Shown here one piece after another: positions 2,112 to 54,080 of a stretch of 64,000 bases of DNA. Numbering within the stretch: the first letter of the stretch is position 1; each line of letters begins with the position of its first letter. A program made the position numbers and the translations under genes. Location: positions 62,001 to 126,000 of the IMG/VR virus record IMGVR_UViG_3300048997_000130; one strand, written 5' to 3'. This DNA comes from a virus. The notes under the pieces are model-generated. The model did no database searches, was not told the origin of the DNA, and worked only from the letters and a program-made list of their open reading frames with translations.

Positions 2112-5100
2112 TCAACTGCATCCCGTAGTATTTCCACAGCTACTACATAAATAGCAACTCCCGCATCTGCGAGTAATCGATCCACAATTGTTACAAGGTG
2201 GAGCATCAATATTCATCTCATTATTAGGAGATGATGATAATTCAGAAGCCGGGATTGCCGTAGGAGTTATGGACTCCGGAGTAGTAGTTGTATTCCCGTA
2301 AGCTTTATCCAAACCAGAATTTTTCCCAGAAAAATAAGTCAAATCGATATATTTAAATATATAGTCATATAGACTATCTGTAAATCGAATCTTAGGATTA
2401 CCCGTATATCCAGATGGTTCAAATTTCGTATTTACGAAACAACGCACCAATTTTTCGAGTGGAACCCCGTGCTGAATAGAAATACTAAGAAGTTTAGTAA
2501 AACTATCCACCAAACCACCCATGGTGGACCCAATTTTCCCTAATCGCACAAATACTTCGCCGGGAGATCCGTCATCATATTCACCAACAATAATATACCC
2601 AGTATGTCCTGCTATATTAAATTTATGACGCCGACTATGTGAATCTATAGGCATTTTGCGTCTATCTGTCACACGGACTTCTCGTATGACTTCCCGAACA
2701 GTTTCCTTAATGCCTGATCCGGATTCCTCTGAAAAACGATTTTTAGTCTTTAGAGGTTGTGATTTCTTGCATCCGTCTCTATATAAAGCTATACATTTGA
2801 GACCGAGTTCCCAACCGATTTTATATAAATCTGCAATTTCTTCCGGAGAAGCTGTTGTTGGTAAATTTACAGTCTTGCTTTGAGCACATGTAATGAGCGG
2901 CTGAATAGCCGCCATCATTTTTAAATGCCCAAGCGGAGGAACGCAACGACCTGATGGTCCGGAAGCCATAGCACAATCAAATATCGGTAAATGTTCTGAT
3001 AGAAGTCCTGGAGCACCTTCAATGAATGAATTTTCCTCTAGATATTCACAAATCCCTTGAATAACCGGCTCTGAATATCCAAGATTGACGAGTGCGGCCT
3101 TCACAGACCCATTCACAAGTTTCATAACACCGCCACCAACAAGCGATTTATATGAAACTAAAGCAAATGCTGGTTCAATCCCTGTCGTATTCATCCCCAT
3201 AAGGAATGAAATCGTATTATGCGACACGAATCCATTGGCAATATATGTAACATTCCCAGGGACTGATATATCATAAGTAAGTTGACGGCCTTGCGATTCC
3301 ACCGTAGTAATTTCATCGTAATAAAAAGAAAGCGCATGTTGCAATCGACCAGCAAAATCAGGAATAAACTTTTCAGCAATATGCCTTGGAATCCGACCAT
3401 CAATATATCTCATTGTAGCGATTTTGCGAAAATCATGACCTATCGGACACACTTCATTAAATAATTCTTCATCAAGATAAATATAATCTCGAGCCCATTC
3501 AGTTTTCCCAAGCACTTTATCAGCCTTACGCGAACATGTAAAACCAACACGTTCCATGAACACACTAGTGAAGTTCCGAGATGTTACCGTTAAACGATAA
3601 ACAGGTTTATCACTATAACCGCCCGTCTGTATATCAAATCTTGTTGGAATCCCAACAGCCAATAACATAGTTTGCACATCACGAATGAAAGCTTCTGATT
3701 TGTTCGTGAGAGATGGTAATCCGTTGGTTACCGAACCATCACAAGTGAATAAACCTCGCAAATAAGCCCCGTATGCTCGCTTATCATTTGTAGCAAGAAT
3801 CGCATCGGGAACATGAGCTTCGAGATGGTCTATTACTTCGATTTTTGCAAATCCAGAAATTGACCACCAAGTTTTGATTTGTGTAGAATTCAAACATAAT
3901 GATATACAGTTATCAGCTGACGTAATAGTTGGATCTTTTCCGAAAAGCTCACGAATGAATCCAGCGCAACGCTCGCGCGCGTCACAATCTTGAGCGTCGA
4001 ATGCAAATCGTAGGCCTTTATGATGCGTCGAACCGTTGGCCGCAAATAATCCACACAATTCCGCCAAACGAATATCGACAATGTTTGGAATTCTAACGCC
4101 TCTATCATAATTCGGGACTAGAGAAGCAGGTAATTTCGGTAACGAAATTTGACGACTCTCGCCGAACAGTTGATTCATACTCAACGGAACAACATCTCCT
4201 TCTTTCAAAGCATCAAAACGGCGCCATTCCCATTGTCCATTCACAATAACTTTGATTTGATGCTTTGGGGTCCCGCGAAGTTGGAATCCACGATCAGTAG
4301 TCACGCCAATAATATCATCTTCACCATTTACATAAAATTGTGTAGCTTGACGTGGTCCAGCATCTGTTTGAACCATGAATTCTACATCTTGCCATTTTTC
4401 ACCATCAGGATTCCCGAGATCTTCAATTCGAATAAGTCCAAGATCTGTTGCGATAAGCGAACCTGCGATAAGGCATCCGAGTGGGGCCTGCAGACTAGCT
4501 TGTGATATACTGAATCCATGGCGCTCACCGAGTTTAATTACTTCTTCCCAAACACTATCCGATAAAGCGCAAACATCATCACCCAATGGATCAAAAGTCC
4601 CTAAATTCCAGCGTTTAGAAATATTCCGGTTGGCTTCTCGATGCATATGCATAATATTCAACATTGCATCGCGATTTTTTTCAAATTCCGAAAATGCAGC
4701 CGTCCGAGCAGCTAATTTGGCTGACCATAAATAAGCATAACCAGTCATGAGACTTGCTAACCGAGCAGCAATAGCACGGCCTTCATCCGAATTATAAGCA
4801 TGACCAAGTTGCATGAGCAGCGATCCAAGATCGCCGTAATTGAGACCGATCGGTCTCAATGCCAACGAATTCTTAGTAATAGAGTCTGTCGGATAGTCGG
4901 CTTTGGCAATAATAGCATTTTGCGCGGTCACGAAAACGCGGACCGAATGCATGAATCGCTGCGTATTTAATTTGCCATCATCAAACATTCGAGTCAAATT
5001 GATAGCACATAAATTGCATGCAGTGTTATCGACATGAGCAAATTCAGCACAGGGATTCGTAGCTCGGATCCTCCCACTACTTGGTGTGGTGTGCCAACGA

Positions 5101-6212
5101 TTTATAGTGTCGGTAAATTGGACACCAGGATCACCGCACATCCATGCAGCCTGTGCTATTTCAGTCCACAGTTCGCGCGCTTTATATTCATGAACAACTT
5201 CTCCAGTTAATCGTTCACGCGTCTTCCACATCCCATCATCAACAACCGCCTGCATAAAAGCGTCGGGAATGCTCACTGAATGATTGGCATTTTGGAATGA
5301 TACCCATTTATATGCAGAATTAGGATCGTCGTAAGCTGCACTATATCCACATTCAATAAGATCATGCGCTCGTTTTTCTTCTATAGCTTTACATCGAATA
5401 AATCCAGGACGCCCATCCATGGTCTCTAAAATATCTGGATGATCCATATCCATAATAGCCATTTTAGCCGCATTCCGAGTGGAACCACCGCTCTTCATGG
5501 CCTTGGCGCCCTTATCAAGCTCCTCCATCCATCCAAGGGGGCCACATACATACGCCCCTGAAGAGAGTTTTTCATATGATGAGCGAATTTTAGATAAATT
5601 GGCTCCTGAACCAGAGCCACCAGCAAATATAATTTTTTCAGATTTGCTGAATTCCATGATTGAATCCAACGTATCATCAACCCCAGAAATAAAACAAGCC
5701 GATGCGGCTTGGCGTCTATCTGGAATACCTACATTAAACCAGACTGGAGAATTGAATGCACCATATTGATGAAGGAGCGCATAAATTAATTCGGCTTCAT
5801 AAATTTCAGCATCTTTAGGAGAATTAAAATATTGTTGCTCATCAGCCCATTGAGTTAGCGTACGAGCAACTCGGCTAAAAAGTTGTTTAGCCGAGGTTTC
5901 TTTCACTCCATTTACCATTCTAAAATATTTACTAACTACTACATTAATGGTTGTCTCGTTCCACCAGTCAGGGACTTCGACATCGAGTTGTTCGAATACC
6001 TTCGAACCATCAGCTCGAACCATCTTAGAATCAACTATTTTCCATTTAATACTGTCAAAAGGATGGACTCCTTCTTGTGTAAAGATACGAGTCCATTTAC
6101 CAGATTCCCTGCCTTCTTTAGAAACACCAATAATGGAATCAAATACTTTCCCTACAGGTGAATCTGATCCGGATTCGGTGTTTTTATTAAGAGCGGCGGA
6201 TCCGTTTGACAT
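2112..6212 (-). CDS. nrdJ: class II (B12-dependent) ribonucleotide reductase with intein
   Basis: Precursor of 1366 aa; reduces ribonucleotides to deoxyribonucleotides using adenosylcobalamin, needing no separate radical subunit. NrdJ landmarks: FNSPVWFNVG, SACFISGVDD, the GSGSGANLSKIR loop, SGGSTRNAAKMAIMDMDHPDI, the active-site NPCAE, and a C-terminal cysteine cluster (CNNCG, CYLCSSCG, GCS) of the type used for re-reduction. An intein occupies residues 580-999 (separate entry); splicing would give about 946 aa, normal for the family. First enzyme of the dNTP genes seen here (ThyX, PurZ, dNMP kinase). The start overlaps the holA 3' end by 26 nt, so the order of expression is holB-holA-nrdJ. 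A GAGG Shine-Dalgarno (tccgaggaggca, minus strand) precedes ATG 6212. Confidence 0.95.
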   Translation of the reverse strand: MSNGSAALNKNTESGSDSPVGKVFDSIIGVSKEGRESGKWTRIFTQEGVHPFDSIKWKIVDSKMVRADGSKVFEQLDVEVPDWWNETTINVVVSKYFRMVNGVKETSAKQLFSRVARTLTQWADEQQYFNSPKDAEIYEAELIYALLHQYGAFNSPVWFNVGIPDRRQAASACFISGVDDTLDSIMEFSKSEKIIFAGGSGSGANLSKIRSSYEKLSSGAYVCGPLGWMEELDKGAKAMKSGGSTRNAAKMAIMDMDHPDILETMDGRPGFIRCKAIEEKRAHDLIECGYSAAYDDPNSAYKWVSFQNANHSVSIPDAFMQAVVDDGMWKTRERLTGEVVHEYKARELWTEIAQAAWMCGDPGVQFTDTINRWHTTPSSGRIRATNPCAEFAHVDNTACNLCAINLTRMFDDGKLNTQRFMHSVRVFVTAQNAIIAKADYPTDSITKNSLALRPIGLNYGDLGSLLMQLGHAYNSDEGRAIAARLASLMTGYAYLWSAKLAARTAAFSEFEKNRDAMLNIMHMHREANRNISKRWNLGTFDPLGDDVCALSDSVWEEVIKLGERHGFSISQASLQAPLGCLIAGSLIATDLGLIRIEDLGNPDGEKWQDVEFMVQTDAGPRQATQFYVNGEDDIIGVTTDRGFQLRGTPKHQIKVIVNGQWEWRRFDALKEGDVVPLSMNQLFGESRQISLPKLPASLVPNYDRGVRIPNIVDIRLAELCGLFAANGSTHHKGLRFAFDAQDCDARERCAGFIRELFGKDPTITSADNCISLCLNSTQIKTWWSISGFAKIEVIDHLEAHVPDAILATNDKRAYGAYLRGLFTCDGSVTNGLPSLTNKSEAFIRDVQTMLLAVGIPTRFDIQTGGYSDKPVYRLTVTSRNFTSVFMERVGFTCSRKADKVLGKTEWARDYIYLDEELFNEVCPIGHDFRKIATMRYIDGRIPRHIAEKFIPDFAGRLQHALSFYYDEITTVESQGRQLTYDISVPGNVTYIANGFVSHNTISFLMGMNTTGIEPAFALVSYKSLVGGGVMKLVNGSVKAALVNLGYSEPVIQGICEYLEENSFIEGAPGLLSEHLPIFDCAMASGPSGRCVPPLGHLKMMAAIQPLITCAQSKTVNLPTTASPEEIADLYKIGWELGLKCIALYRDGCKKSQPLKTKNRFSEESGSGIKETVREVIREVRVTDRRKMPIDSHSRRHKFNIAGHTGYIIVGEYDDGSPGEVFVRLGKIGSTMGGLVDSFTKLLSISIQHGVPLEKLVRCFVNTKFEPSGYTGNPKIRFTDSLYDYIFKYIDLTYFSGKNSGLDKAYGNTTTTPESITPTAIPASELSSSPNNEMNIDAPPCNNCGSITRRCGSCYLCSSCGNTTGCS
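3216..4475 (-). other. intein in NrdJ with LAGLIDADG endonuclease domain
   Basis: Encodes residues 580-999 (420 aa). It begins with Cys (CLIAGSLIATD) after QAPLG and ends in VSHN before Thr, so the spliced junction is APLG-TISFLMG. Residue +1 is Thr. Two LAGLIDADG-type motifs are visible: LCGLFAANGS (Asn at 726 where an acidic metal ligand is expected) and LRGLFTCDGS (Asp 825 kept). Protein splicing looks intact; DNA cleavage by the homing endonuclease may be lost because one of the two catalytic acids is missing. Insertion is in the conserved TISF region of the reductase. Confidence 0.92.
4839..4860. repeat. 22-nt perfect palindrome inside nrdJ
   Basis: Centre GACCGATCGGTC, arms of 11 nt with no loop, inside the N-terminal extein coding sequence. 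Confidence 0.8.
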
Positions 6213-14020: not shown

Positions 14021-15202
14021 ATGCAAGCTGGCAAATTCAATATAATAATCGACGGGTTTTGGGGTTCTTCAGGAAAAGGTAAGATATCTACATACCTCGC
14101 CGATCAATATAATTCTACATTCATATCATCGGCCAATTATCCGAATGCAGGTCATAGTGCTGTGTTTGAGAACGGCGTCAAATTCGTTGCCAAAGCCATT
14201 CCGACTTCAGCCATTCTCAAGAAGGTCAAAGGCACAGACATACAGTGTTTCCTTTCTCCTGGATCTGGATTCAATCCCATACAACTCTTAAAAGAATGGG
14301 AAGAATGCGACAGACCAAACATATTTATCCACGATCGAGCCTCAATAATGACTTCAGAACATGCACTTCGGGAGCGAGAAGGTTCGGATTCGACCAAACA
14401 CATTGCCTCCACCATGCAAGGTTCTGGAGTCGCTATAGCAGATAAAATAATGCGTAGACCGGATGTTCAATTAGCAAAGAATTGGGATCCGAAAGTGACC
14501 CTTCATGATAATGATCATCTTGAATCTGTGTTTGGGGATGATCTCGAGCGGATCCGAATTACGGATGGAATGGAATTCAGGAATTTAGTTCATTCTATGG
14601 TTAATAACGGGCAAACTTGGCTCCATGAAGGTTCCCAAGGTTATTCGTTGTCCATAGATCATGGGTCACAATATCCATATACTACGAGCAGGAACTGCGG
14701 AGTTCAAGCCGCCATGGATTATATGGCGATCCCACCTCAAATAGTTGGTGATGTATATTTGAATCTTCGTACTTATCCTATTCGAGTAGGGAATGTTGTT
14801 GAAAATGGACAACAACTCGGATACTCAGGTGATTTTTATCCGGATTGCACGGAACTCACTTGGAAAGAAGTTGCCCGGCGAGCTGGAATGCCTGATGAAG
14901 AAGCTCAAATGCTAGCTGAACGCGAGCGGACTACAGTGACAAAACGAATTAGAAGGGTTTGTAATTTTTCGTATCTTGGATTACAAGATGCCGTGAGAAC
15001 GAATGGTGCGACCAAACTTTCCATGAATTTTATTCAATATATTGATTGGTCTGACGCTGGTTTACGAGGAGGAAAAGAAGCTTTCAAGAAGCTTTCCAAG
15101 AAAAGCAGAACTTTCATTGATAAAGTCGAAGAAGTTGCTGGAGTCCCGGTTGTTCTTATTGGAACAGGCGCCAGTCATGAAGAAATCATTAATTTGCTGT
15201 AA
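14021..15202 (+). CDS. purZ: PurZ-type adenylosuccinate synthetase homologue (2-aminoadenine pathway)
   Basis: 393 aa, shorter than cellular PurA (about 430). The P-loop reads GFWGSSGKGK: Ser 16 takes the place of the PurA catalytic Asp of GDEGKGK. Phage PurZ enzymes that join Asp to dGMP, giving N6-succino-2-amino-dAMP for Z-DNA, also lack that Asp; it is said to clash with the guanine amino group. Other family landmarks are kept: NAGHS (His 45), MQGSGVA, HEGSQGYSLSIDHGSQYPYT, the Arg-rich KRIRR loop, and a C-terminal GTGASHE. The product would need host PurB and kinases. DatZ, MazZ and a PolA/DpoZ polymerase are not in this window. The next gene starts directly after the stop. Confidence 0.8.
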   Translation: MQAGKFNIIIDGFWGSSGKGKISTYLADQYNSTFISSANYPNAGHSAVFENGVKFVAKAIPTSAILKKVKGTDIQCFLSPGSGFNPIQLLKEWEECDRPNIFIHDRASIMTSEHALREREGSDSTKHIASTMQGSGVAIADKIMRRPDVQLAKNWDPKVTLHDNDHLESVFGDDLERIRITDGMEFRNLVHSMVNNGQTWLHEGSQGYSLSIDHGSQYPYTTSRNCGVQAAMDYMAIPPQIVGDVYLNLRTYPIRVGNVVENGQQLGYSGDFYPDCTELTWKEVARRAGMPDEEAQMLAERERTTVTKRIRRVCNFSYLGLQDAVRTNGATKLSMNFIQYIDWSDAGLRGGKEAFKKLSKKSRTFIDKVEEVAGVPVVLIGTGASHEEIINLL

Positions 15203-38569: not shown

Positions 38570-38595
38570 GCTAAGTTCAAGAAACCCAGATTTAC
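38570..38595 (-). promoter_or_regulatory. array promoter for 38293-38547
   Basis: GTAAAT, 14 nt, CTTAGC; 7 nt before GGTGGAGG begins. Confidence 0.6.
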
Positions 38596-39032
38596 ACTGT
38601 CCGGATTTGAGGCCGACAATACTGCGCTTTCCCGCCAATGTGCTCAACGAGCCGCACCTGGATTTCCGACCGGCCGTTCAGAATCTGAGCTGCCACACGC
38701 GTATGATTTTGCACATAATAAACGCCATCTTTCACAACCACCAGAGGCAGTTCTTGAGGCGCGTTTTCCGTGTACTTTCTGAGGCCGTCTCGGTATACGT
38801 AGTCTTGCACGGGAACCAGGACGGAAGCTGGAAGCTCGGTTTTAACTGCCAGCTTCAGAAATGCCTTCCTGGAGAACCCGAAAATCACCGGCGTGGAAGC
38901 GTTCTTGAAAATGCTTCCAATATCCACGATGTTCTCGCGTTGGGCGTTGGGTCCAAAGCCTCGCGACACGGTCTCCTCGGGCAAGCTCGGAAGCGCATCA
39001 ATGATGTCCAAAATGTTTTGTCGTGAGTTCAT
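38592..39032 (-). CDS. hypothetical protein, 146 aa
   Basis: C-terminal part has QELPLVVVKDGVYYVQNHTR then VAAQILNGRSEIQVRLVEHI. The pattern recalls ParB/Srx-like folds (VVVKDGxxxVxNGHHR, AAxxxG), though the catalytic motif is not clear. Start ATG 39032 behind GGAGG. Confidence 0.6.
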   Translation of the reverse strand: MNSRQNILDIIDALPSLPEETVSRGFGPNAQRENIVDIGSIFKNASTPVIFGFSRKAFLKLAVKTELPASVLVPVQDYVYRDGLRKYTENAPQELPLVVVKDGVYYVQNHTRVAAQILNGRSEIQVRLVEHIGGKAQYCRPQIRTV

Positions 39033-39054
39033 TTCCCGGGTGCCTCCAGTCCGT

Positions 39055-39080
39055 TCTAAACCTTGGAGACTCGGATTTAC
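39055..39080 (-). promoter_or_regulatory. array promoter for 38592-39032
   Basis: GTAAAT, 14 nt, TTTAGA, 7 nt, GGAGG. Directly downstream of the tRNA-like end of the RNA at 39084-39300. Confidence 0.7.
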
Positions 39081-39083
39081 GCG

Positions 39084-39300
39084 TGGACACGACGGGATTC
39101 GAACCCGCGATGACTTGGGAATGTTCATGGACTTGCTCCGGGGAACGCCATGCCCGACCTTTGCCAGTCTGAGGTATCGTGCCCCCGGCAGCCATCACTT
39201 CTCGAAGGACAAGGTCAAATCCGGTGCAAATTAGACAGTTGGGGGTCCATCTAATCGGCTGGTTTTGGATTTGACCTTATCTCTCGAGAAGTGATGTCCT
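39084..39300 (-). ncRNA. structured RNA with nested 5' hairpin and tRNA-like 3' domain
   Basis: The predicted start is just after an array promoter. 5' domain: 13-bp stem (39193-39205 with 39284-39296), 5x5 internal loop, 12-bp stem (39211-39222 with 39267-39278), then 6-bp stem (39230-39235 with 39250-39255). 3' domain (39084-39184, 101 nt): acceptor GGGCACG / CGTGTCC with one G-U, D-arm-like ACCTCAGACTGGCAAAGGT, and a canonical T arm with TTCGAAT. Between D and T arms no standard 5-bp/7-nt anticodon arm can be drawn. No CCA is encoded. Either a degenerate or unusual tRNA or a tRNA-mimicking RNA. Confidence 0.6.
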
Positions 39301-39307
39301 GTCCAAT

Positions 39308-39333
39308 TTTACACTTGGAACCCGGGAATTTAC
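39308..39333 (-). promoter_or_regulatory. array promoter for the tRNA-like RNA
   Basis: GTAAAT, 14 nt, TGTAAA; no ribosome site follows, and 7 nt later the long hairpin of the RNA begins. Confidence 0.65.
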
Positions 39334-39340
39334 GGAATTT

Positions 39341-39544
39341 TCAATCTTCCAGCGGGCGATTGACGTAGATGAGCGATTCCAAGTGTCGGCTTCCCCGCGC
39401 AAATTCGGCTTTAGCATCCGGCCGACTGATAACAAACGGATCGAATCGCAGCAAGCCCTGAATCAGAATGGCGTTGCCATGGACTTCACTTGTGCAAAGC
39501 GTCTTCCTGACCGACCCACCAATGTTCCAAGTTGCGTCTTTCAT
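39341..39544 (-). CDS. hypothetical protein, 67 aa
   Basis: GNAILIQGLLRFDPFVISRP core, not recognised. GGAGGTTC site before ATG 39544. Confidence 0.55.
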   Translation of the reverse strand: MKDATWNIGGSVRKTLCTSEVHGNAILIQGLLRFDPFVISRPDAKAEFARGSRHLESLIYVNRPLED

Positions 39545-48427: not shown

Positions 48428-48453
48428 CCTATATATGGGATGGGTGAATTTCC
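48428..48453 (-). promoter_or_regulatory. array promoter for 48299-48420
   Basis: GGAAAT, 14 nt, TATAGG; directly after the 48452-48504 hairpin. Confidence 0.6.
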
Positions 48454-48504
48454 ATACAGCTGAAGGGGAGGCCGGGAAAACCGGCCTCCCCTTCAGCTGT
48501 ATGG
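48452..48504 (-). terminator. 24-bp perfect hairpin, 5-nt loop
   Basis: Arms 48452-48475 and 48481-48504, GC-rich centre GAGGCCGG, placed 9 nt after the secreted-protein gene's stop. The longest perfect stem in the window. No T run. Confidence 0.7.
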
Positions 48505-53511: not shown

Positions 53512-53519
53512 GAGGAAGC

Positions 53520-53545
53520 GTAAGTTCGGACTTCGTGTTTTTAGG
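53520..53545 (+). promoter_or_regulatory. array promoter, plus strand
   Basis: GTAAGT, 14 nt, TTTAGG; then AAGGA and the TTG of the 53551-53703 frame. Confidence 0.55.
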
Positions 53546-53550
53546 AAGGA

Positions 53551-53703
53551 TTGAAGCAGACGGCACCTCGGGGAAATCCCGGAGATCCGGATGAAATAGG
53601 GACGCTTTGGGGAGAACTGTTTTTCGTCGGCCCAACTTTAACACACTTTCGTCCGAAGCCGCTCTACTCCGTATCAGGTTCCCATCTTAGTGACGGCCTC
53701 TGA
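53551..53703 (+). CDS. possible 50-aa protein, TTG start
   Basis: KQTAPRGNPGDPDEIGTLWG then ELFFVGPTL; the ribosome site almost touches TTG, so translation is doubtful. The DNA AATAGGGACGCTT in it is repeated near 53830. Confidence 0.3.
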   Translation: MKQTAPRGNPGDPDEIGTLWGELFFVGPTLTHFRPKPLYSVSGSHLSDGL

Positions 53704-53719
53704 TCCGCTTGGTGATCTT

Positions 53720-53745
53720 TCTATAAAGATATGTCTGGAATTTAC
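53720..53745 (-). promoter_or_regulatory. array promoter without clear gene
   Basis: GTAAAT, 14 nt, TATAGA; only a three-codon frame (ATG-GGA-ACC-TGA) follows. Could drive a short RNA. Confidence 0.55.
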
Positions 53746-53753
53746 GAAGTCCC

Positions 53754-53779
53754 GTAAATCGACGATATTCAGGTGTAGT
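53754..53779 (+). promoter_or_regulatory. array promoter, plus strand, without clear gene
   Basis: GTAAAT, 14 nt, TGTAGT, then AGGAG directly against an ATG with 16 codons (53785-53835). Confidence 0.55.
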
Positions 53780-53858
53780 AGGAGATGAAGCGGCGACACC
53801 GTTTGCACCAGGCAAACATAGGATCGGCGGAATAGGGACGCTTGGCGGAAAAGTATTT

Positions 53859-54080
53859 CTAAATTTTAGTGAGCTTCCAAGTCCAAAATATCTGATATTG
53901 GTATGTGGATATGGTACATACAGCTGTATTTATTAGTTGATATTCATATGATGATTCGTCATCATTCAGTTCATTGCAGTTTGGAGATTCTGGTTGTGGA
54001 ATGAAGTCGATCGTATTTATTGGTTTAATTTGACCGATCGCTGACGTGGTTACGTATTCGGCTGTTGATTTAACTATCAT
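53859..54080 (-). CDS. hypothetical protein, 73 aa
   Basis: Ser/Asn/Thr/Tyr-rich, AT-richer than neighbours; ATGA overlap with 54077-54292. Not recognised. Confidence 0.45.
   Translation of the reverse strand: MIVKSTAEYVTTSAIGQIKPINTIDFIPQPESPNCNELNDDESSYEYQLINTAVCTISTYQYQIFWTWKLTKI

What the first reader, a model, noticed from the sequence alone, without database searches (positions are those of the whole stretch)
39084..39333. A promoter-driven RNA with a tRNA-like end and a long nested hairpin
The RNA predicted from the promoter at 39308 starts within 4 nt of a 13-bp stem that continues as a 12-bp and a 6-bp stem. It ends in an acceptor stem, D-arm-like element and canonical T arm, but no standard anticodon arm can be drawn in the 48 nt between D and T arms, and the 3' CCA is absent. 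I know of no phage RNA with this layout. It could be tRNA-mimicking RNA that recruits RNase P, CCA enzyme or EF-Tu, or a decoy for a host tRNA nuclease.
Basis: partly seen in the sequence, partly recalled or inferred. Interest (0 to 1): 0.85.

Follow-up and report, generated by a model that had tools for sequence, protein, structure and literature searches.

The report
Phage hairpin plus alanine-type tRNA-like RNA
A large phage carries a small non-coding RNA gene with its own promoter, made of a strong hairpin followed by a deformed copy of an alanine transfer RNA; it is probably a phage tRNA variant or tRNA mimic rather than a new class of RNA, and its function is untested.

Summary
The anatomy is real. 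On the minus strand, a phage promoter (CGTAAAT-N14-TGTAAAA, 39334-39307) drives about 220 nt that hold no ORF and end 3 nt before the next gene's promoter (39081). The motif recurs 65 times in the window at score >13, mostly in front of ORFs. The RNA opens with a 30-bp stem, the best inverted repeat found in the 196.7-kb phage record, followed by a tRNA-like domain (39084-39184).

The claim that no anticodon arm can be drawn is wrong. In the correct register there is CGGGC-AUGGCGUU-CCCCG: four G-C pairs and U33-GGC34-36 in an 8-nt loop. GGC is an alanine anticodon, and the acceptor carries G3·U70 and A73, the alanine identity elements (shuffle chance of the anticodon arm 2.3e-4). The anomalies left are the 8-nt loop, a ~30-nt unstructured variable region and a weak cloverleaf. 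Missing CCA is normal for this phage.

I found no homologue, so the stems have no covariation test. Most likely it is a diverged phage tRNA-Ala(GGC)-type gene with a 5' hairpin, working as an infection-time tRNA or tRNA mimic; a decaying tRNA gene is the main rival.

In passing I found a covarying ~235-nt tRNA-ended RNA in RtcR/Ro60/RtcB operons without an Rfam match.

The parts
39307..39334 (-). phage-type promoter of the RNA: CGTAAAT (39334-39328), 14-nt spacer, TGTAAAA (39313-39307); predicted start about 39298-39302
   Evidence: motif score 23.2; 65 window sites >13 against ~0.4 expected per strand per 33 kb shuffled
39193..39296 (-). 5'-terminal hairpin; arms 39267-39296 and 39193-39222 (30 pairs, one A.C mismatch), inner stem within 39229-39256
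   Evidence: top inverted repeat of the record; the repeat finder I1; MFE -102.2, z -6.8
39084..39184 (-). tRNA-like domain, alanine type
   Evidence: sequence; Rfam tRNA 20.8 bits in another register; arms listed below
39178..39184 (-). acceptor 5' strand GGGCACG (next base A can extend it to 8 bp)
   Evidence: pairs with 39085-39091; pair probability about 1.0 in the excised domain
39158..39174 (-). D arm CCU-CAGACUGGCAA-AGG with A14, G15, G18, G19, A21 in place
   Evidence: sequence; pair probability only 0.02 in the thermodynamic ensemble
39139..39156 (-). anticodon arm CGGGC-AUGGCGUU-CCCCG; anticodon GGC at 39147-39149, U33 before it; 8-nt loop
   Evidence: shuffle frequency of 4 G-C pairs + U33 + Ala anticodon in register 0.00023
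39109..39138 (-). oversized variable region, 30 nt, with a CAAGTC direct repeat and no good helix
   Evidence: sequence; inner 49 nt fold no better than shuffles
39092..39108 (-). T arm GCGGG-UUCGAAU-CCCGU
   Evidence: sequence; exact match to the tRNA-end profile A2
39084..39091 (-). acceptor 3' strand CGUGUCC + A73; G3.U70 present; no CCA encoded (CGC follows)
   Evidence: sequence
39054..39081 (-). promoter of the next gene, starting 3 nt after A73 of the tRNA-like domain
   Evidence: score 23.5
38592..39032 (-). next gene, 146 aa, no known family
39341..39544 (-). upstream gene, 67 aa, no known family

Best explanation
This is a monocistronic non-coding gene of a large tailed phage. From its own phage-class promoter an RNA of about 220 nt is made. 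Its first ~105 nt form a 30-bp hairpin at the very 5' end, which would shield the 5' end or be cut by RNase III. The rest is a diverged tRNA-Ala(GGC)-type domain with G3.U70, A73, D loop, T arm and U33-GGC. RNase P would trim it at 39184/39185, the 3' end would be cut after A73, and host CCA enzyme would add CCA. It would then act during infection as an extra or altered tRNA-Ala (able to read GCU/GCC if the 8-nt loop allows) or as a tRNA-Ala mimic less sensitive to host anticodon nucleases. Shown here: promoter motif, hairpin, tRNA-like anatomy and absence of an ORF. Inferred: transcription, processing, CCA addition, alanylation and function.
For: Promoter copy without ORF, filling exactly the gap between two genes. 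Hairpin. Two independent alanine signs agree: G3.U70/A73 in the acceptor and U33-GGC in an in-register arm with four G-C pairs, shuffle frequency 0.00023. D-loop CUCAGACUGG is like that of ordinary tRNA-Ala (own knowledge of E. coli tRNA-Ala GGC, loop AUGGCAU). GCT is the commonest Ala codon of the phage. The phage already carries a tRNA set, mostly without CCA. Precedent: phage tRNAs with altered anticodon loops against anticodon nucleases (PMC10264068) and strongly expressed phage tRNAs that blunt defence (PMC11555353).
Against: The 8-nt anticodon loop with a C.C closing mismatch, the 30-nt variable region without a helix, and a cloverleaf 9.2 kcal/mol above the MFE (other phage tRNAs 0-7.9). 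In the unprocessed transcript the leader CCGG competes with the acceptor. No tRNA program calls it without an intron. No homologue shows the domain is conserved.
Confidence: 0.45

Rival explanations
1. A decaying tRNA-Ala gene (pseudogene). A former phage tRNA has gained an extra loop base and ~25 nt in the variable region and lost function; the hairpin and promoter are left over or serve as a leader/insulator.
For: Weak cloverleaf, unstructured insert with a CAAGTC direct repeat (sequence), Rfam tRNA below threshold, inner region folds like shuffled sequence. Another damaged tRNA is present in the same genome (L012:14052-14268).
Against: All core tRNA positions (acceptor, U8/A14, G15, G18/G19, U54/U55/C56/A58, G3.U70, U33, anticodon) are intact; the promoter is intact and of ordinary score.
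Confidence: 0.3
2. A tRNA mimic that does not translate: the acceptor/T-arm end recruits RNase P, CCA enzyme, AlaRS or EF-Tu, or soaks up a host tRNA nuclease, and the hairpin is the effector part.
For: An alternative fold 0.4 kcal/mol above the MFE keeps acceptor and T arm and makes a long central hairpin (CAUGG/CCAUG) in place of the anticodon arm (pair probability ~0.7). A tRNA-like RNA proposed as competitor of an anticodon nuclease is on record for YrlA (PMC7790460).
Against: That central hairpin is no better than chance, and the in-register alanine anticodon would be a coincidence.
Confidence: 0.13
3. A relative of the ~235-nt tRNA-ended RNA of RtcR/Ro60/RtcB operons (L024-L029, L039, L044), i.e. 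part of an RNA-repair system.
For: The 23-nt T-arm/acceptor string GGGTTCGAATCCCGTCGTGTCCA has 5 exact matches in genome contigs and 1 in viral contigs, and all six belong to that RNA. The acceptor GGGCACG is identical in L024 and L029.
Against: The covariance model of that RNA scores the window at 21.6 bits, only through the ends, while short tRNA-sized matches in ordinary genomes score about 25-35. No other shared sequence. No Ro60 or RtcB in the record.
Confidence: 0.07
4. A split or intron-bearing tRNA (ARAGORN: tRNA-Phe GAA with a 22-nt intron).
For: ARAGORN with introns allowed.
Against: Low score (59), anticodon stem with a mismatch, no known 22-nt self-splicing intron, and Phe disagrees with G3.U70.
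Confidence: 0.03

Closest known systems
Bacterial tRNA-Ala(GGC) and phage-encoded tRNAs
   Same: G3.U70, A73, D loop, T arm, U33-GGC; a phage tRNA set present in the genome
   Different: 8-nt anticodon loop, ~30-nt variable region, 5'-terminal 30-bp hairpin, lies ~44 and ~93 kb away from the phage's other tRNAs, not called by tRNA programs without an intron
tmRNA (RF00023)
   Same: alanine-type acceptor and T arm; extra sequence between D and T arms; 23.4 bits
   Different: below the gathering score of 47; no tag reading frame called and only ~100 nt between the ends; D stem present
YrlA / bacterial Y RNA (RF02553)
   Same: tRNA-like domain plus a long stem
   Different: 11.5 bits against 69; element order differs; no Ro60 in the record
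Unnamed ~235-nt tRNA-ended RNA of RtcR/Ro60/RtcB operons (found here)
   Same: 23-nt T-arm/acceptor string and G3.U70
   Different: its core of covarying helices is absent in the window RNA; it encodes CCA
T4 small stable RNAs C and D (own knowledge)
   Same: phage stable RNAs made with a tRNA set
   Different: not compared by sequence here

Membership tests
tRNA (RF00005 / ARAGORN) | score over the family cut-off with a full cloverleaf | tested here: not met
   20.8 bits against 29, in a different register; ARAGORN none without intron
tRNA-Ala | G3.U70 with A73 in the acceptor | tested here: met
   sequence GGGCACG / CGUGUCCA
tRNA-Ala | U33 and NGC anticodon in register on a paired stem | tested here: met
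   CGGGC-AUGGCGUU-CCCCG, four G-C pairs, shuffle frequency 0.00023; loop is 8 not 7 nt
tRNA-Ala | short (about 5 nt) variable loop | tested here: not met
   30 nt
tRNA-Ala | charging with alanine | not testable with these tools
   needs an aminoacylation assay
tmRNA | family score and tag reading frame | tested here: not met
   23.4 bits against 47; ARAGORN finds no tmRNA in the window
YrlA / Y RNA | family score | tested here: not met
   11.5 bits against 69
YrlA / Y RNA | Ro60 (TROVE) partner in the genome | tested here: inconclusive
   none in the record, but the record may be incomplete and the host could supply it
RtcB/Ro60-operon tRNA-ended RNA (model R1) | match over the covarying core | tested here: not met
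   21.6 bits from the ends only; short tRNA-sized matches in ordinary genomes reach 25-35 bits

The most novel reading that the evidence does not exclude
A phage-made alanine-tRNA mimic: an RNA processed and charged like tRNA-Ala but with an altered decoding loop and a large variable insert, joined to a 30-bp hairpin, used as decoy or nuclease-proof substitute against host tRNA-cleaving defence, or as an 8-nt-loop tRNA that shifts frame.
Probability: 0.15. Interest if true: 0.7.

Novelty: new variant of a known kind. Interest (0 to 1): 0.4.

Why it matters
If expressed and charged, it would be a phage tRNA with an enlarged loop and variable region, useful for asking how far tRNA shape can be bent while staying a substrate of RNase P, CCA enzyme and AlaRS, and whether such bending protects against anticodon nucleases. 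If not, it is one more decaying phage tRNA.

Tried and rejected
Relatives by neighbour protein, AAA protein and RNR in IMG/VR: none close. Hairpin pattern, D-arm+T-arm pattern, anticodon+T-arm pattern and promoter+SD pattern: no homologue. Distant blastn against phages: only short tRNA-like or chance matches. attP explanation: rejected, because no ordinary bacterial tRNA turned up with the 23-nt 3' end in the 84,980-genome collection, the 5' acceptor strand and D arm are present as well, and no integrase turned up among the neighbouring proteins tested. YrlA match of 33.6 bits at L012:14211-14333: judged to be a T arm followed by the next tRNA's D arm, not a Y RNA. Kinship to the RtcB/Ro60-operon RNA: looked striking from the exact 23-mer but fell when the control showed tRNA-sized matches in ordinary genomes scoring higher with the same model.

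Full report
Setting. The window is 62001-126000 of a 196,676-base phage record. Left of about 31 kb it is AT-rich and codes for replication and nucleotide proteins; inteins or intein-like LAGLIDADG insertions occur in the record's class II ribonucleotide reductase, a RecD2-like helicase and the terminase. To the right the window is GC-richer with many short genes, none of the ten tested around the element having a known Pfam family. No close relative was found in IMG/VR or among cultured phages.

Promoter. Direct repeats around the element turned out to be a promoter-like motif. A weight matrix started from CGTAAAT-N14-[CT][AG]TAG gave the consensus CGtAAATc..............aTAg. It has 76 sites >13 in the record, 65 of them in the window, against 0.4 per strand (at the laxer score >11) in 33 kb of shuffled sequence; most stand just before an ORF. 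The copy at 39334 scores 23.2 and has no ORF directly after it. The next copy begins at 39081, 3 nt after the tRNA-like domain, and precedes the 146-aa gene at 38592-39032. The RNA therefore has a gene-like slot of its own. That the motif is a promoter is inferred from its shape and position, not shown by experiment.

Hairpin. The arms 39267-39296 and 39193-39222 give 30 pairs with one mismatch, beginning 2-6 nt from the predicted start. In a scan of the whole record this was the best-scoring inverted repeat. The full RNA folds at -102.2 kcal/mol, z = -6.8. Nothing similar is found elsewhere in the record apart from its own two arms or, by exact pattern, in IMG/VR.

tRNA-like domain. The acceptor GGGCACG pairs with CGUGUCC (seven pairs including G3.U70), followed by A73; the T arm is GCGGG-UUCGAAU-CCCGU; the D arm is CCU-CAGACUGGCAA-AGG. 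Reading on from the D arm, U26 is followed by CGGGC-AUGGCGUU-CCCCG. That is four G-C pairs, a C.C mismatch at 31/39, and an 8-nt loop with U33 before GGC. In 200,000 shuffles of the 49-nt interval, with six registers allowed, four G-C pairs arise in 1.2% and four G-C pairs plus U33 plus an alanine anticodon in 0.023%. G3.U70 with A73 is the known identity signal for alanyl-tRNA synthetase (own knowledge). Two independent alanine marks thus agree, which makes descent from a tRNA-Ala(GGC)-like gene the best reading. The register was chosen after seeing the sequence, so the shuffle figure is a guide, not a strict probability. What is abnormal is the extra loop base, a 30-nt variable region in which I see no helix, and a cloverleaf 9.2 kcal/mol above the MFE, where five other phage tRNAs lie 0-7.9 above theirs. 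Rfam tRNA gives 20.8 bits in a different register. ARAGORN finds nothing unless introns are allowed.

Is lack of CCA odd? No. Of the five ARAGORN-called tRNAs in the 145-kb and 194-kb regions, four end without CCA.

A striking lead that did not hold. The string GGGTTCGAATCCCGTCGTGTCCA has only six exact matches in the 84,980-genome and IMG/VR collections. All six lie in one RNA of about 235 nt that sits behind a sigma-54-like sequence, next to Ro60-like and RtcB genes and opposite rtcR. Seven copies fold with 26 of 65 pairs changed on both sides in at least one sequence, and Rfam has no match over threshold. A model of it scores the window RNA at 21.6 bits, using only the two ends. The needed control, 398 genomes of the phylum, gave many short (about 80-100 nt) matches at about 25-35 bits, the size of ordinary tRNAs. 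Kinship is therefore not supported.

Function. Phage tRNAs with changed anticodon loops have been proposed to escape host anticodon nucleases (PMC10264068). Strongly expressed phage tRNAs blunt tRNA-cleaving defence (PMC11555353). [quoted passage not shown] The window RNA fits the same general use, but nothing here tests it. A decaying gene explains the odd features nearly as well. I rate the two at 0.45 and 0.30.

Noticed in passing
L024:1678-1909(-), L025:3520-3748(-), L026, L027, L028, L029:2983-3214(-), L039:2990-3233(+), L044: A conserved ~235-nt RNA with tRNA ends (G3.U70 acceptor, T arm, encoded CCA) in RtcR/Ro60/RtcB operons of Pseudomonadota and on one viral contig; 26 pairs with double changes, no Rfam match over threshold, 2 clear members in 398 phylum genomes. 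Possibly an undescribed RNA family and perhaps more interesting than the finding itself.
   Followed up: partly
window 36000-64000, both strands: Phage promoter-like motif CGTAAAT-N14-[CT][AG]TAG before most short genes (65 window sites >13).
   Followed up: partly
window 53519-53890 (+): Two neighbouring promoter copies (53519+, 53753+) each followed by similar non-coding stretches sharing GAATAGGGACGCTT-like sequence; opposing promoters at 53512- and 53746-. Possible paralogous small RNAs.
   Followed up: partly
L012:14052-14268 (record 194052-194268): A tRNA 3' half (T arm, acceptor CGGATCC) whose matching 5' strand GGATCTG lies ~150 nt upstream, with a complete tRNA (14080-14151) in between: a split or interrupted tRNA gene.
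   Followed up: partly
window 48452-48504: Perfect 24-bp GC-rich hairpin with 5-nt loop beside a promoter copy at 48454- that has no long ORF after it.
   Followed up: no
window 2112-6212(-); L007:15750-19277(-); L006:13105-16707(-): LAGLIDADG inteins or intein-like insertions in class II ribonucleotide reductase, RecD2-like helicase and terminase of the same phage.
   Followed up: no
L012:13921-14003: tRNA-Tyr of the phage with mismatches in the anticodon stem (38.3 bits), another divergent phage tRNA.
   Followed up: no
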